Assembly (NCBI GenBank): GCA_030386875.1 | Contig: CM059564.1 | Location: forward strand, 47,326,075-47,390,074 | Origin: Morinoia aosen | Taxonomy: Eukaryota > Arthropoda > Malacostraca > Amphipoda > Talitridae | Direction of reading: 5' to 3' | DNA length: 64,000 nucleotides | Shown: piece after piece, positions 5,037 through 57,249 of the stretch | How the letters are laid out: each line of letters starts with the position of its first letter | Position numbering within the stretch: the first letter of the stretch is position 1 | Program-made: the position numbers and the translations under genes | Notes under the pieces: generated by a model | What the model was told of the DNA's origin: nothing | The model's database searches: none | The model's input: the letters and a program-made list of their open reading frames with translations, nothing else

Positions 5037-5102
5037 ATTTAGCAAAACATGCCGGCAGGTGTTGCTGGGCTGGTCTGCGCCTTGTAAGTCCTTCTATCTT
5101 TA

Positions 5103-5312
5103 CGTTCCATAATATAGAGACTCTATGGTGTGAAGATAAAAAGCATTGAAGTAGAAGATGAAACATTGGATTCGTGCAACTTTTTATTACATTTTTAGGA
5201 TTATATTTTTTTTTAAATTTAGTCTTCCTTTAAAAGTGTACAAATTCAATATTTAACCTTCTACTTCAACATTCTTGATCTTCACACTATGGAGTCTCTA
5301 TATTATGGAACG
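5103..5312. mobile_element. Foldback/MITE-like inverted repeat, 55-bp arms
   Basis: The left arm 5103-5157 starts CGTTCCATAATATAGAGACT. The right arm 5259-5312 is its reverse complement at roughly 85-90 percent identity. The 101-bp spacer is A/T-rich. No convincing target-site duplication was found, so the superfamily is not assigned. Confidence 0.7.
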
Positions 5313-5319
5313 CAAACTT

Positions 5320-11686: not shown

Positions 11687-11959
11687 CACGCTAGAGGAAA
11701 CAAGGTGGGGTCATTTCTATGGGAGAAAATACACCTCCTCTTGTTCGGCTAGCCAATAGAAAGGCTTTATTTCAGACAAATTTTATTGCGTCACCAAAAC
11801 ACCATGTCGCTAGACCAATAGTAGAGCCAGAGTTGGGGGTAGCAGTGCTACCAGATGTAATATGAGTGCTGCTATTGGTTCGTTGTCGTGACGTCAGCAA
11901 ACCCACACCGTCAACGGAAAAAAAGACTGGTTTAAACCTACCTTGTTTCCTCTACCGTG
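11687..11959 (-). mobile_element. hAT-type MITE family 1, copy A (273 bp)
   Basis: Terminal inverted repeats are CACGCTAGAGGAAACAAGG (left) and, reverse-complemented from the right, CACGGTAGAGGAAACAAGG. The flanks GTACTAAT (11679-11686) and GTACTAAC (11960-11967) match in 7 of 8 bases, an 8-bp duplication typical of hAT elements. It is inverted relative to copies B and C. Non-autonomous; any open frame inside is accidental. Confidence 0.92.
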
Positions 11960-12110
11960 GTACTAACTAACGCAGGGTTTCGTTTGTCATCATTCCATAG
12001 AGCATTCTGTGGAACTCACAAATGCCTGGACAACAACCAGGTGCAACATGGATTGCGCATCACTGATACTGATATCCACCGAGGTGTATTTCAATAAGAG
12101 TTCCCGAAGA

Positions 12111-12132
12111 GAATAATAATAATAATAATAAA
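12111..12132. repeat. (AAT)n microsatellite
   Basis: About seven AAT units lie between MITE copies A and B. The roughly 210-bp spacer 11968-12160 holds nothing else recognisable. Confidence 0.8.
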
Positions 12133-12168
12133 ATTTCCTCCACTCTCGAAATATTTCTCGGCTTCAGC

Positions 12169-12428
12169 CACGGTAGAGGAAACAAGGTAGGTTCAAACCA
12201 TTTGACAGTGTGGTTTTGCTTACGTCACGGCAACGAACCAATAGCCGCTCTCATTTGAATCTGGTAGCACTGCTACCCCCAAATCTGGCTTCACTATTGG
12301 TCTAACGATACGGTGTTTTGGTAATGTCATAAAGTTTGTTTGAAATAAAGCCTTTCTATTGGCTAGTCGAAGAAGAGGAGGTGTATTTTCTCCCATAGAA
12401 ATGACCCTACCTTGTTTCCTCTACCGTG
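12169..12428 (+). mobile_element. hAT-type MITE family 1, copy B (260 bp)
   Basis: Both ends read CACGGTAGAGGAAACAAGGT inward. Flanks GCTTCAGC (12161-12168) and GCTGCAGC (12429-12436) match in 7 of 8 bases. The body aligns to the reverse complement of copy A and to copy C, including the GACAGTGTGGTTTTGCTNACGTCACG region. A and B form a long inverted pair 210 bp apart that could fold back in a transcript. Confidence 0.93.
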
Positions 12429-13180: not shown

Positions 13181-13257
13181 ACACCATCAGCATCACCAGT
13201 CATACCAGAATAACACCATCACCATCAGCATCACCAGTCATACCAGAATAACACCAT
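13181..13257. repeat. 38-bp tandem duplication (CATCAGCATCACCAGTCATA type)
   Basis: Two copies with a 38-bp period, starting at 13185 and 13223, each containing CATCAGCATCACCAGTCATA and CCAGAATAACACCATCAC. They sit immediately upstream of the A/C satellite. Confidence 0.85.
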
Positions 13258-14607
13258 CACCACCACCAACACCCAAACACAACAACAATACTAGCACCAC
13301 CACACCAACAACCAAACACCACAACAACACCACCACCACCACACCAACAACCAAACACCACCACCCCCCACCACGCCAACAACCAAACACCACAACAACA
13401 CCACCACCACCACACCAACAACCAAACACCACAACAACACCACCACCACCACACCAACAACCAAACACCACCACCCCCACCACGCCAACAACCAAACACC
13501 ACCACCCCACCACACCAACAACCAAACACCACAACAACACCACCACCACCACCACACCAACAACGAAACACCACTATCCCCACCACGCCAACAACCAAAC
13601 ACCACAACAACACCACCACCACCACCACACCAACAACCAAACACCACCACCCCCACCACACCAACAACCAAACACCACAACAACACCACCACCACCACAC
13701 CAACAACCAACCACCACCATCCCCACCACGCCAACAACCAAACACCACAACAACACCACCACCACCACCACACCAACAACCAAACACCACCATCCCCACC
13801 ACGCCAACAACCAAACACCACAACAACACCATCACCACCACCACGCCAACAACCAAACACCACCACCTCCACCACACCAACAACCAAACACCACAACAAC
13901 ACCACCACCACCACACCAACAACCAAACACCACCACCCCCAACACGCCAACAACCAAACACCACAACAACACCACCACCACCACCACACCAACAACCAAA
14001 CACCACCACCCCCACCACGCCAACAACCAAACACCACAACAACACCACCACAACCACCACACCAACAACCAAACACCACCACCCCCACCACGCCAACAAC
14101 CAAACACCACAACAACACCACCACCACCACACCAACAACCAAACACCACCACCCCCATCATGCCAACAACCAAACACCACAACAACACCACCACCACCAC
14201 ACCAACAACCAAACACCACAACAACACCACCACCACCACACCAACAACCAACAACCAAACACCACCACCCCCACCACGCCAACAACCAAACACCACAACA
14301 ACACCCCCACCACCACACCAACAACCAAACACCACCATCCCCACCACGCCAACAACCAAACACCACAACAACACCACCACCACCACACCAACAACCAAAC
14401 ACCACCACCCCCACCACGCCAACAACCAAACACCACAACAACACCACCACCACCACAATAACAACCAAACACCACCACCCCCACCACGCCAACAACCAAA
14501 CACCACAACACCACCACCCCCACCACGCCAATAACCAAACACCACAACAACACCACTACCCCCACCACGCCAACAACCAAACACCACAACAACACCACCA
14601 CCACCAG
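13258..14607. repeat. 1.35-kb A/C-only minisatellite with about 70-bp two-part unit
   Basis: Two sub-units alternate, both beginning CAACAACCAAACACCA. One of about 39 bp continues with CAACAACACCACCACC; one of about 31 bp continues with CCACCCCCACCACGC. The plus strand is almost pure A/C and the minus strand almost pure G/T, so stop codons are nearly impossible in all six frames. The long Trp/Gly/Val frames (to 424 codons) on the minus strand and the Thr/Pro/His frame on the plus strand are artefacts of this. The minus strand has many GGGGG and GGTGG runs and could form G-quadruplexes. Confidence 0.95.
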
Positions 14608-23605: not shown

Positions 23606-24754
23606 GGGGGTCCTCCGGAATGAAAATTTTTTTGATCCGATTGGTCTGAAACTTGGTGAGTATATGTAGTTTTGCAAGGCAAACATATTTGAACTTGAAA
23701 TTTTTTGATTTAGGCCTTAGTTTTTCCGAAAAATTTGAAAAATAGGTTTTTTGGGTCATTTTTATGCATATTTCAAAAGAATCGAAGTCATTGAGTTTTT
23801 ATGCTAGAACAAATTCAAAGACAGTTTTGGAATCCTTGAAACATTTCTAACAAAGATATATTCGGGGATTTTGCATTTTTTGTATAATTTTTTTTTATAT
23901 GCGAAAATTTACCAATAAATGAAAAAAAAACGAAATTTTTGGATTTGAACCATTATAAAGAAAAATGAAATGTAAAAATGGAAAAAAAGGGAATATAACT
24001 TTGTTAGAAATGTTCCAAGGATTCCAAAACTGTCTTTGAATTTGTTCTAGCATAAAAACTCAATGACTTCTATTCTTTTGAATTTTGAAAGTAAGTAACT
24101 TTACAGTATAGGCCAAAAACTAAATTTTTTGTTTTAGTGTGATATAATGGAAAATTTATGTAATTGAATGCTGTTTTCATTTTTATTTCGATTATCTCCA
24201 TGCATAACACCATATTCACACTGTGAATTGTAATTTCCAAAAAAGAAAAAAATTTAAAAAATTTTTACTTATATCATAAAATTATGAAATTTTTTGTTTT
24301 CAGTTTGATTCTTATGAAATGTGACTATAATATGGTACTTTTGAAAAGAAACACAATTTCCTCTATACATTTTTTCGATTCAGGCCTTAGTTTTTGAAAA
24401 AATTTGACATATTGGTTTTTAGTCCACTGGTGTTGATATTTCAAAAGAATAGAACTCATTGAGTTTTCAGGCTAGAACAAAAACAAAGACAGTTTTAGAA
24501 TCCTTGAAACACATCTAACAAAAGTACATTCGCAAATTTTCTATATCTTATTTTGTTTTCTTTTTATATTGGGTCGAAATTGGCTCGAAAATTTAAGATT
24601 TTGGTCCCCTTCCCCCCCCCCCCCCATGGGGAGGGATCTATTGTCCGTAGTGCCATGAAATTTTAGGACCGAATAGTCCACCACCTAAGGGTTCTTTTCC
24701 AACAATAAAATGAAAAATGACCGTCGGAGAGAAAAGGGGCCCCGGAGGACCCCC
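23606..24754. mobile_element. TTAA-target DNA transposon, non-autonomous, 1149 bp
   Basis: Perfect 13-bp terminal inverted repeats GGGGGTCCTCCGG (23606-23618) and its complement (24742-24754) are flanked on both sides by TTAA (23602-23605 and 24755-24758). TTAA duplication is the mark of piggyBac, Kolobok and some Sola elements. The G-rich terminus does not decide between them. No transposase frame is present. Inside, a module of about 97 bp occurs three times: direct at 23767-23863, inverted at 23991-24087, and direct again at 24435-24531. A 15-base C run lies at about 24611-24625. Confidence 0.88.
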
Positions 24755-45343: not shown

Positions 45344-45623
45344 CACGGTAGCAGAAACAAGGTACAGTAGGTTCAAACCAGTCTTTTTTTGTTGACGGTG
45401 TGGTTTTGCTGACGTCACGTCAACGAACCAACAGCAGCACTCATATTGCATCTGGTAACACTGCTACCCCCAAATCCGTCTCAACTATTGGCCTAACGAC
45501 ATGGCGTTTTGGTGACATTATAAAGTTTGTTTCAAATAAATCCTTTCTATTGCCCAGCCAAACAAGAAGAAGTGCATTTTCCTCCATCCATAGAAATGCC
45601 CCTACCTTGTTTCCTCTACCGTG
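45344..45623 (+). mobile_element. hAT-type MITE family 1, copy C (280 bp)
   Basis: The left end CACGGTAGCAGAAACAAGGT has a small insertion relative to the consensus; the right end is CCTTGTTTCCTCTACCGTG. Flanks AACACGAG (45336-45343) and AACACGGG (45624-45631) match in 7 of 8 bases. It has the same orientation as copy B. The 74-codon frame across it lies wholly within the MITE and is accidental. Confidence 0.93.
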
Positions 45624-45639
45624 AACACGGGTGACACGA

Positions 45640-47555: not shown

Positions 47556-47654
47556 TGTAGAACTAATATTATATTTCCAATAGGGCGATTCATCGAGAAT
47601 CTTATTCGTAGAATAAAAAGAAGAATCAGAGTAAAAACGAACATTACATTTATT

Positions 47655-47690
47655 GCAAACGTTTCGGAATTAAAATTCCATCATCAGTGC
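47655..47690 (-). ncRNA. Hammerhead ribozyme motif, PLE type, left arm of insertion 1
   Basis: Read on the minus strand: helix I strand GCA, CTGATGA core, one extra T, helix II GGAATT-TT-AATTCC (perfect hairpin), GAA, loopless helix III ACGT, cleavage-site T, then helix I strand TGC. All core bases of the hammerhead are present. The ACGT palindrome without a loop is the minimal helix III described for PLE hammerheads that cleave as dimers. Only 3 bp of helix I are clear. Confidence 0.72.
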
Positions 47691-47871
47691 TGGAACAGGA
47701 GAGAAAAAAAATAAATTGTCTATTCTGAACACAAAAATCATATTATTCCACATAATTCTCTAAATGACTAAAAACCAAATTTGTTCATTCATACTCAAAC
47801 AATAGCATACTCCTAATTCACACAAAAACACATGTACACGCTAATTCAGAAACAACAACGAAACACACTAT

Positions 47872-47875
<4 letters not shown>

Positions 47876-47909
<34 letters not shown>
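47876..47909. repeat. (CA)n microsatellite
   Basis: About 16 CA units in the left PLE arm. The matching place in the right arm (about 48348-48362) has a much shorter TG run, so the microsatellite changed length after the pair formed. Confidence 0.9.
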
Positions 47910-47910
<1 letters not shown>

Positions 47911-47926
47911 CACATACAGAATTACG

Positions 47927-48170
47927 TCAGTAGGTGGGGGCAATTGATAACTTTACGGCACTAATGTCTTTGTTGAGGTTAGGTTTATGAGTGAATATGA
48001 AAAGGGACTCTAGAATTCTTAGGTCATGCTCCCTATTAGCTCGGCATAAAGTTGAAAAATTAATAGTTTTGAATGAATGGTTCGAATTTTCACAGTGATC
48101 CCTAATTGCTGATTGGGGTGGAGTGGTTAGTGCACGACCTGTTCTATGAGATATTCCTGCATGTTGGCTA
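47927..48170 (-). pseudogene. PLE GIY-YIG endonuclease fragment, left arm
   Basis: The frame reads HAGISHRTGRA, then SAIRDHCENSNHSFKTINF, then a conserved Glu in LRILESLFIFTHKPNLN, and ends at a TAA/TGA-type stop at 47927. It matches the C-terminal half of the GIY-YIG nuclease that Penelope-like retroelements carry after the reverse transcriptase. The His of HAG, the RTG turn, the IRDHC zinc-ligand region and the catalytic Glu plus KPxLN tail are all in place. The N-terminal GIY and YIG strands and all of the RT are missing by 5' truncation. Apparent residues before HAG come from the inverted right arm. A non-functional fragment, but with no internal stop. Confidence 0.85.
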
Positions 48171-48333
48171 AAATTCGAACCATTCATTCAAAACTATTAA
48201 TTTTTCAACTTTATGCCGAGCTAATAGAGAGCATGACCTAAGAATTCTAGAGTCCCTTTTCATATTCACTCATAAACCTAACCTCAACAAAGACATTAGT
48301 GCCGTAAAGTTATCAATTGCCCCCACCTACTGA
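48171..48333 (+). pseudogene. PLE GIY-YIG endonuclease fragment, right arm
   Basis: This is the same C-terminal region as the left arm on the other strand, read from AAT at 48172 to TGA at 48331-48333 (54 codons). It lacks the HAG...RTG part because the right copy is truncated further. The frame is intact and ends identically to the left copy, so the two arms are recent relative to each other. Confidence 0.82.
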
Positions 48334-48552
48334 CGTAATTCTGTATGTATGTGTGTGTGTGTGAATGCAAGGTGTGTTTCGTTATTGTTTCTGAATTAGC
48401 GTGTACATGTGTTTTTGTGTGAATTAGGAGTATGCTATTGTTTGAGTATGAATGAAAAAATTAGGTTTTTTAGTCATTTAAAGAATTATGTGGAATTATA
48501 TGATTTTTGTGCTTAGAATAGACAATTTATTTTTTTTTTCTCTCCTGTTCTC

Positions 48553-48588
48553 GCACTGATGATGGAATTATAATTTCGAAAAGCTTGC
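48553..48588 (+). ncRNA. Hammerhead ribozyme motif, decayed, right arm of insertion 1
   Basis: GCA, CTGATGA, T, helix II GGAATTATAATTTC (one G-T wobble), GAA, then AAGC in place of ACGT, T, TGC. The catalytic core before helix III is intact, but the ACGT palindrome is mutated, so this copy is probably impaired or inactive. Confidence 0.6.
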
Positions 48589-48659
48589 AATAAATGTAAT
48601 GTTCGTTTTTACTCTGGTTCTTCTTTTTATTCTAGAACTAATATTGTATCGCATCAAGT

Positions 48660-55605: not shown

Positions 55606-55695
55606 TATTGCGAGTTTATGAATATTAGGAATATCTTTTCTGCTAAGCAGTTTAACTATAAAGGTTATTGCATAGAAGAACTTTAAAATCATTTT

Positions 55696-55733
55696 AATGA
55701 AACGTTTCAAGCCTCAGCTCATCATCAGTCATT
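55696..55733 (-). ncRNA. Hammerhead ribozyme motif, PLE type, left arm of insertion 2
   Basis: Minus strand: helix I AATGA, CTGATGA, extra T, helix II GAGC-TGAG-GCTT (one wobble), GAA, ACGT, T at the cleavage site, then TCATT pairing 5 bp with AATGA. Complete hammerhead core with minimal palindromic helix III. Confidence 0.78.
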
Positions 55734-55983
55734 TCTGAAAGTACAAGATATACAGTATTGAATAAAAGCACGACAAAATCATAAAATTGCTCATTCTTCA
55801 TGCAATCAGATAAAAAAGACATGACATTAAAACTGAATAAATCTAAATATCAAAACTTCACTGACTAGAATCGTAAATGTGAGTTAAAACGGAAAATAAG
55901 AATACAAGTGTACAACTAAAATGCGGAAGGGTCATAAGGTCAGCTTAGTAGCTCAAATAAAATCTAACCAAGAAGAGAGACAG

Positions 55984-56010
55984 AGGGGGGAGGGGGGGGG
56001 GGGGGGGGTG
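55984..56010. repeat. G homopolymer tract
   Basis: A run of about 20 G with two or three interruptions, in the left PLE arm. The right arm has a shorter C-rich counterpart at about 56893-56905. The tract is a G-quadruplex candidate, and its length may be unreliable in assembly. Confidence 0.9.
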
Positions 56011-56103
56011 GGGAATGAGTAATAGAGAAAGTGAGAGAGAGAAAGAGAAGACAGAATATGAAGGGGAAAAAAAAATATATATATGTACATTGAATATTGC
56101 TCA

Positions 56104-56454
56104 CTAAGAACCTATAATTTTTAACGGATAAGCACTCTGCATATCATTCAGTGCCGGTTTCAATCTGTGTATATAGAGAGATTCTAGCACGCGCAGTTCA
56201 CAAGAATTCGAAGCGTAGTCTAAAATTTTAAATCGCTCTTTACTGATAATTTGTTCGCATTGACCCATACAGTGCTGCCTTATGTTGGAATGTGAAGGTG
56301 CCCCTAACGGACGTCCAGTGCGATGACTCCTTCCGGCATGCTCAGCGACTCTCATAAATAGTGCTCGGTGGGTTGATCCCACATACCGCGATGCGCAATG
56401 CGCACAACTAAATTCATAAATGAGAGATGATCGCAAGCCCTTGACGATGATCAT
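56104..56454 (-). pseudogene. PLE GIY-YIG endonuclease fragment, left arm
   Basis: A 116-codon frame carries the whole GIY-YIG nuclease core. SSLIYEFSCAHCASRYVGST gives the GIY (LIY) and YIG (YVG) strands with the Cys-x2-Cys insert typical of Penelope-like elements. Then come the conserved Arg and His in MRVAEHAG, the SHRTGRPLG turn, the SNIRQHC ligand region, and the catalytic Glu in RVLESLYIHRLKPALND. Penelope-like nucleases nick target DNA during integration, after an N-terminal reverse transcriptase. Here all RT sequence is missing, so the protein could not support transposition. No internal stop. The reading frame closes at AYPLKIIGS-stop. Confidence 0.9.
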
Positions 56455-56472
56455 AATTCATAAATGAGAAAT

Positions 56473-56801
56473 GATCATCTCTCATTTATGAATTTAGTTG
56501 TGCGCATTGCGCATCGCGGTATGTGGGATCAACCCACCGAGCACTATTTATGAGAGTCGCTGAGCATGCCGGAAGGAGTCATCGCACTGGACGTCCGTTA
56601 GGGGCACCTTCACATTCCAACATAAGGCAGCACTGTATGGGTCAATGAGAACACATTATCAGTAAAGAGCGATTTAAAATTTTAGACTACGCTTCGAATT
56701 CTTGTGAACTGCGCGTGCTAGAATCTCTCTATATACACAGATTGAAACCGGCACTGAATGATATGCAGAGTGCTTATCCTTTAAAAATTATAGGTTCTTA
56801 G
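56473..56801 (+). pseudogene. PLE GIY-YIG endonuclease fragment, right arm, with nonsense codon
   Basis: This is the inverted twin of the left fragment on the plus strand, beginning at SSLIYEF and ending at the same stop (TAG 56799-56801). It is nearly identical, but the Cys codon TGC after the MGQ motif has become TGA (56645-56647), and a nearby Gln is changed to His. The break explains why no long open frame appears on this arm and shows that it is evolving as dead sequence. Confidence 0.88.
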
Positions 56802-57156
56802 TGAGCAATATCCAATGTACATATATATATATATTTTCCCCCTTTATATTCTTTCTTCTCTTTCTCTCTCTCACTTTCTCTCTTACTCATTTCCCCCCCT
56901 CCCCCTCTGTCTCTCTTCTTGGTTAGATTTTATTTGAGCTACTAAGCTGACCTTATGACCCTTCCGCATTTTAGTCGTACTCTTGTATTCTTATTTTCCG
57001 TTTTAACTCACATTTACGATTCTAGTCAGTGAAGTTTTGATATTTAGATTTATTCAGTTTTTATGTCATGTCTTTTTTATCTGATTGCATGAAGAATGAG
57101 CAATTTTATGATTTTGTCGTGTTTTTATTCAATACTGTATATCTTGTACTTTCAGA

Positions 57157-57194
57157 AATGACTGATGATAAGCTGAGGCTTGAAACGTTTCATT
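57157..57194 (+). ncRNA. Hammerhead ribozyme motif, PLE type, right arm of insertion 2
   Basis: AATGA, CTGATGA, T, helix II AAGC-TGAG-GCTT (fully Watson-Crick), GAA, ACGT, T, TCATT. The single difference from the left copy (GAGC to AAGC) turns a wobble into a Watson-Crick pair, so the fold is kept in both. Confidence 0.8.
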
Positions 57195-57249
57195 AAAATG
57201 ATTTTAAAGTTCTTCTTTGCAATAACCTTCATAGAGTTTATGAATTTTA

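What the first reader, a model, noticed from the sequence alone, without database searches (positions are those of the whole stretch)
55612..57245. Head-to-head PLE pair enclosed by one target-site duplication
Two 5'-truncated PLE copies meet at their truncated ends, with both 3' ends outward, inside a single identical 12-bp duplication (GAGTTTATGAAT). One insertion event therefore delivered both. The centre carries a partial repeat of the left arm, which suggests template switching by the element's reverse transcriptase. Such a perfect long hairpin is also a natural source of double-stranded RNA for small-RNA silencing.
Basis: partly seen in the sequence, partly recalled or inferred. Interest (0 to 1): 0.72.

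Follow-up and report, generated by a model that had tools for sequence, protein, structure and literature searches.

The report
Head-to-head Penelope retrotransposon insertion
A jumping element of the Penelope type copied itself from both strands of one cut site and left two back-to-back copies; this layout is already known for such elements, but comparing copies across this genome suggests that each insertion uses two alternative start points once each, one per strand.

Summary
Two 5'-truncated copies of one Penelope-like element (PLE) lie head-to-head at 55624-57233 inside an exact 12-bp duplication. Corrections: the arms are 97.6% identical where aligned, not perfect; a 27-29 nt filler joins them; and the left arm has a 32-nt 3' "tail" that the right arm lacks. 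Head-to-head PLEs, junction palindromes and an optional tail are already in print (PMC3846280), so the object is an ordinary member of a known kind.

Best explanation: both strands of one staggered cut primed reverse transcription and the two cDNAs were joined. A purified PLE does cut and extend both strands, starting at two sites that border the tail (PMC11167929).

What goes further: in the window's own 1.99-Gb genome, all 22 two-armed insertions that I could close with two standard outer ends have exactly one tailed and one untailed end (18 of this family, 4 of others); none has two alike. Four further insertions do not fit this class (two with one non-standard end, two with a single tailed arm). 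Partner arms form an exclusive clade in 10 of 13 insertions on a tree. This hints at one RNA with two start sites, each used once. The filler's origin and any small-RNA role remain open.

The parts
55612..55623 (+). Left copy of the 12-bp target-site duplication GAGTTTATGAAT
   Evidence: Only two occurrences in the window, either strand; 0 of 400 null draws
55624..55655 (-). Optional 3' tail (32 nt) of the left arm, absent from the right arm
   Evidence: Arm alignment; in tandem copies elsewhere the same bases run on into the next unit
55656..56443 (-). Left arm: 5'-truncated PLE, C-terminal coding part and 3' UTR, frame open to its stop
56444..56472 (.). Junction filler, 27-29 nt, mostly a copy of the adjoining arm's end; source of the 22-nt repeat and the central palindrome
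   Evidence: 26 of 26 other arm rows that reach this point lack it; 0 of 200 shuffles match nearby sequence as well
56473..57233 (+). Right arm: 5'-truncated PLE, untailed, with a stop codon inside the coding part
57234..57245 (+). Right copy of the target-site duplication
55703..55727 (-). Hammerhead-like core (TGATGA...GAAACG) in the left arm; mirrored at 57163-57187 on + in the right arm
   Evidence: Pattern match; motif recalled; not confirmed by Rfam or by folding
47558..48649 (.). Second head-to-head PLE pair, another family; left arm tailed, right arm untailed; duplication 16 of 17 by eye
   Evidence: null 2 of 400
57696..57910 (.). Third, short head-to-head PLE pair; left arm untailed, right arm tailed; duplication 10 of 12
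   Evidence: null 6 of 400

Best explanation
This is one retrotransposition event of a Penelope-like element. The element's protein cut both strands of one site with a 12-nt stagger and used both free 3' ends as primers on its own RNA, starting beyond the tail on one strand and before the tail on the other. The two antisense cDNAs ran inward, stopped early, and were joined, here with a short templated filler. Shown: one exact duplication, both 3' ends outward, one tailed and one untailed start, truncated 5' ends, the filler, and the same architecture at other insertions. Inferred: both strands acted as primers; both starts belonged to one ribonucleoprotein and perhaps one RNA; the filler was made by the RT or by end-joining repair.
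For: Exact duplication. One tailed and one untailed outer end in 22 of 22 two-armed insertions with two standard ends: 18 of this family, 2 of a second family, and the two other pairs in the window. Partner arms form an exclusive clade in 10 of 13 insertions; nearest neighbours share an insertion in 18 of 30 rows, at most 8 in 20,000 label shuffles. A purified PLE cuts and extends both strands and starts at two sites that border the tail (PMC11167929).
Against: No activity, RNA or read data from this host. In vitro, start sites did not differ between strands, and one-of-each use per molecule was not reported in the parts I read (2 of 4). L038 and L053 have one non-standard end; L043 and L051 have a single tailed arm. 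L042 and L046 partners are not sisters, L041's arms sit in a four-row clade with L050, and this pair's own clade is weak; in the raw-distance test both rows of this pair are misses. Duplications are weak or low-complexity in L041, L042 and L046 and weaker in the two other window pairs.
Confidence: 0.75

Rival explanations
1. Self-priming: an antisense template folds back at its 3' end, is copied into a hairpin, and the hairpin is inserted whole, as proposed for Adineta vaga PLEs.
For: Explains head-to-head order, palindromes at junctions and sister arms (PMC3846280; tree).
Against: Both arms should end alike; instead the outer ends differ by one tail in 22 of 22 (and those cited above). One arm can be 23 nt (L048).
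Confidence: 0.12
2. Two separate insertions, or a later inverted duplication, brought the arms together.
For: PLEs insert into one another and occur in tandem (PMC3846280).
Against: One exact direct duplication brackets both arms and no second one is seen; the same layout recurs at other sites.
Confidence: 0.05
3. The inverted arm is an assembly artefact.
For: Long inverted repeats are a known assembly hazard (general knowledge); no reads were available.
Against: The duplication brackets the whole structure; the layout recurs with no shared flanks among 18 insertions; L027 and L050, copies of one locus, carry the same junction.
Confidence: 0.03

Closest known systems
Endonuclease-containing Penelope elements of Adineta vaga (PMC3846280; passages and Discussion read)
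   Same: Inverted head-to-head ends, palindromes at the inverted junction, short target duplications, partial tandems, a tail optionally on one of the inverted ends
   Different: There the inverted part is often a short pseudo-LTR next to a longer copy; here both arms are 5'-truncated. That paper proposes self-priming on an antisense template
Poseidon PAc of Anolis carolinensis (PMC11167929; parts 1-2 of 4 read)
   Same: Two RT start sites bordering a tail; both target strands cut and extended; tandem units
   Different: In vitro, scored in bulk; the head-to-head structure of genomic copies is not discussed in the parts I read
L1 twin priming (recalled)
   Same: Two priming events in one insertion, an inversion, one duplication
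   Different: In L1 the inverted part is upstream sequence and one outer end is a 5' part; here both outer ends are 3' ends

Membership tests
Penelope-like elements (endonuclease-containing) | Reverse transcriptase in a single long ORF | tested here: met
   L035 copy: 844-aa frame, Pfam RVT_1 35.3 bits against a cut-off of 29.6. The window copies are truncated and lack it
Penelope-like elements (endonuclease-containing) | C-terminal GIY-YIG endonuclease | tested here: inconclusive
   Pfam GIY-YIG on the window fragment E 0.12, 13.1 bits against 22.6; not listed at E up to 1 for the full L035 frame. A YVG...R...EH pattern is seen by eye (motif recalled)
Penelope-like elements (endonuclease-containing) | Tandem units giving pseudo-LTRs | tested here: met
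   L035, L037, L043 and others hold units of about 2.92 kb in tandem
Penelope-like elements (endonuclease-containing) | Optional 3' tail of about 30-40 nt inside the start of the ORF | tested here: met
   32 nt; in L035 it lies near the start of the frame
Penelope-like elements (endonuclease-containing) | Short target duplications and 5' truncation | tested here: met
Penelope-like elements (endonuclease-containing) | Hammerhead ribozyme motif in the pseudo-LTR | tested here: inconclusive
   Core-like pattern, but no Rfam hammerhead match and an unremarkable fold, z -0.77
Dual-strand target-primed reverse transcription (mechanism) | Both cut strands extended by the element's RT | not testable with these tools
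   Shown in vitro for another PLE (PMC11167929); here only the footprint

The most novel reading that the evidence does not exclude
A one-of-each rule: a PLE insertion is templated by a single RNA with two start sites, and a paired (probably dimeric) enzyme uses each site once, one on each target strand, so a standard two-armed insertion always carries one tailed and one untailed end. The inverted arm is then a normal product of PLE integration, which may be long, very short (23 nt in L048) or lost, not an accident.
Probability: 0.5. Interest if true: 0.72.

Novelty: new member of a known kind. Interest (0 to 1): 0.5.

Why it matters
How Penelope-like elements complete integration is open. Their inverted structures have been put down to self-priming, while recent biochemistry shows cutting and extension of both strands from two start sites. 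The tail pattern across insertions connects these facts and makes the question testable by counting ends in any PLE-rich genome. The locus itself looks like an ordinary transposon relic; I saw no sign of a host function, but did not test for one.

Tried and rejected
Relatives outside the host: the search for related loci in viral contigs gave one hit, L001, whose reading frames look phage-like by eye; taken as a chance match and not used. The 117-aa fragment has no PDB sequence match at E up to 10. Rfam low-threshold hits over the arms (mir-556, SpF43 and others) are below their gathering scores and centre on the foldback. A hammerhead ribozyme was considered and left as a motif. Target microhomology: the target and the truncation region share TTTATGAATTT (11 nt; 11 of 3000 draws had as much); found after the fact and not used. 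A first null for the duplication was spoiled by overlapping draws, so one search is cited instead.

Two family-2 pairs first looked tailed at both ends; their left tails proved to run on inside tandem units, and the outer ends one unit further out are untailed.

Accounting for the tail count. One search scored 40 of 1919 candidates and listed 44 matches in 33 regions by my grouping. I saw 26 of the 33: the window, 19 regions in the 20 stretches, L053 and L027-L031. Mixed ends, 14: W1, L032/33, L035, L036, L037, L039, L041, L042, L044, L045, L046, L047, L048, L050. Set aside, 12: L027 (copy of the L050 locus), L038 and L053 (one non-standard end), L043 and L051 (single tailed arm), L034, L040 and L049 (not determinable), L028-L031 (partner not in the stretch; L028 and L029 share a flank). 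Seven regions were not seen. From (40 of 1013 candidates scored, 42 matches) I fetched four new compact pairs and counted all four; its other new arms were not seen. L036's tailed end is short and repetitive (tail score 25 of 64) and L048's untailed arm is 23 nt; both are less secure. The value 2^-18 assumes independent, equally likely ends. The family-2 search used a query with the tail and favours tailed ends.

Full report
What is there. Between 55624 and 57233 two copies of one element face each other with their 3' ends outward. They align over 759 columns with 18 mismatches and 16 gap columns. An exact 12-bp direct duplication, found nowhere else in the window, brackets the pair; none of 400 null draws scored as well. 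The left arm has an open frame that matches, by eye, the C-terminus of an 844-aa frame in the copy L035; the right arm has a stop codon in it.

Which element. The L035 frame has a reverse transcriptase domain above Pfam's cut-off. The GIY-YIG endonuclease is not confirmed by Pfam: E 0.12 for the window fragment and not listed for the L035 frame. The filing as a Penelope-like element rests on the RT, the tandem units, the tail, the 5' truncation and the short duplications, plus a recalled GIY-YIG pattern.

The tail. The left arm runs 32 nt further at its 3' end than the right arm. In tandem copies the same bases lead on into the next unit. [quoted passage not shown]

The centre. All 26 other arm rows that reach this point read GATGACCTTCCCAAG upstream of the shared sequence, so the left arm's element sequence ends at about 56443. 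A filler of 27-29 nt follows, mostly a copy of nearby arm sequence (0 of 200 shuffles as good). Across the 16 junctions, this one included, the arms meet within 3 nt (overlap or gap) in 8, one has 4 nt, and 7 have fillers of 10-69 nt. Of these 7, this one and L049 are clearly templated (0 of 200); L042 and L036 are borderline (best 9 and 18 of 200); L039, L041 and L050 are not (best 53-57 of 200).

More in the window. Two pairs of other PLE families, at 47558-48649 and 57696-57910, also have one tailed and one untailed arm, with weaker duplications (2 and 6 of 400 null draws). By eye their untailed ends fall at the same aligned position.

The genome. In this family, 18 of 18 two-armed insertions that I could close with standard outer ends have one tailed and one untailed end. 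Scored duplications of 10-16 nt, which can include a few element bases, support most; L041 and L046 are low-complexity and L042 is weak (4 of 400). Outside this class: L038 and L053 have one non-standard end, L043 and L051 a single tailed arm. In the second family two pairs looked tailed at both ends, but the left tails were internal to tandems. I then looked one unit further out and found untailed ends, with duplications GGTAAACTTTTT and AACCCAATTCT. With the two other window pairs this makes 22 of 22.

Partner arms. On a tree of 37 arm rows, partners form an exclusive clade in 10 of 13 insertions with two or more rows. This pair's clade is weak (83/69); L042 and L046 do not group, L041's arms share a four-row clade with L050, and one internal fragment of L044 sits apart. 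By raw distance, nearest neighbours share an insertion in 18 of 30 rows, against at most 8 in 20,000 label shuffles; both rows of this pair are misses in that test.

Mechanism. A purified PLE cuts and extends both strands and has two start sites (PMC11167929). Two cDNAs primed from the two strands of one cut, one from each site, give this anatomy. If two RNAs were used independently, insertions with two like ends should be common; none was seen among the 22. The simplest reading is one RNA whose two sites are each used once, perhaps by a paired enzyme; that step is inference. Self-priming on an antisense template (PMC3846280) explains head-to-head order and sister arms but not the unequal ends.

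Known or new. The layout, the junction palindromes and the optional tail are in print. I found no statement of a one-of-each rule in the listings of eight paper searches or in what I read of three papers: passages and Discussion of PMC3846280, parts 1-2 of 4 of PMC11167929, passages of PMC8969392. Three key PLE papers are not held, and PMC3846280 already says the tail occurs on one of the inverted ends. So the object is a new member of a known kind and the rule a testable extension.

Limits. No reads, RNA data or empty allele were available.

Noticed in passing
window 59846-60038: A further copy of the second PLE family, tailed, next to no obvious partner arm; its tail is conserved with that of the pair at 47558-48649.
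   Followed up: partly
G000:C14:58405124-58436584: Eleven plus-strand units of the second PLE family in tandem at 2790-2791 bp spacing, with a minus-strand unit head-to-head at the left; the ends looked at still lie inside the element. Such an array would suit copying of a multimeric or circular RNA.
   Followed up: partly
L036:3297-3365: The tailed arm seems reduced to about 69 nt of repeated tail-start pieces, as if reverse transcription restarted several times at the same site.
   Followed up: partly
L027 and L050; L028 and L029: PLE insertions with identical flanks at distant places, so duplicated loci; L027 and L050 share the same arm junction.
   Followed up: partly
window 11687-12428 and 45344-45624: Three copies of an inverted-repeat element with CCACGGTAGAGGAAACAAGGTAGG-like ends.
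   Followed up: no
window 23662-24578 and 5099-5316: Further inverted repeats of unknown kind.
   Followed up: no
window 13242-14606: A CAC-rich tandem array of about 1.36 kb with strong strand skew, open in several frames.
   Followed up: no
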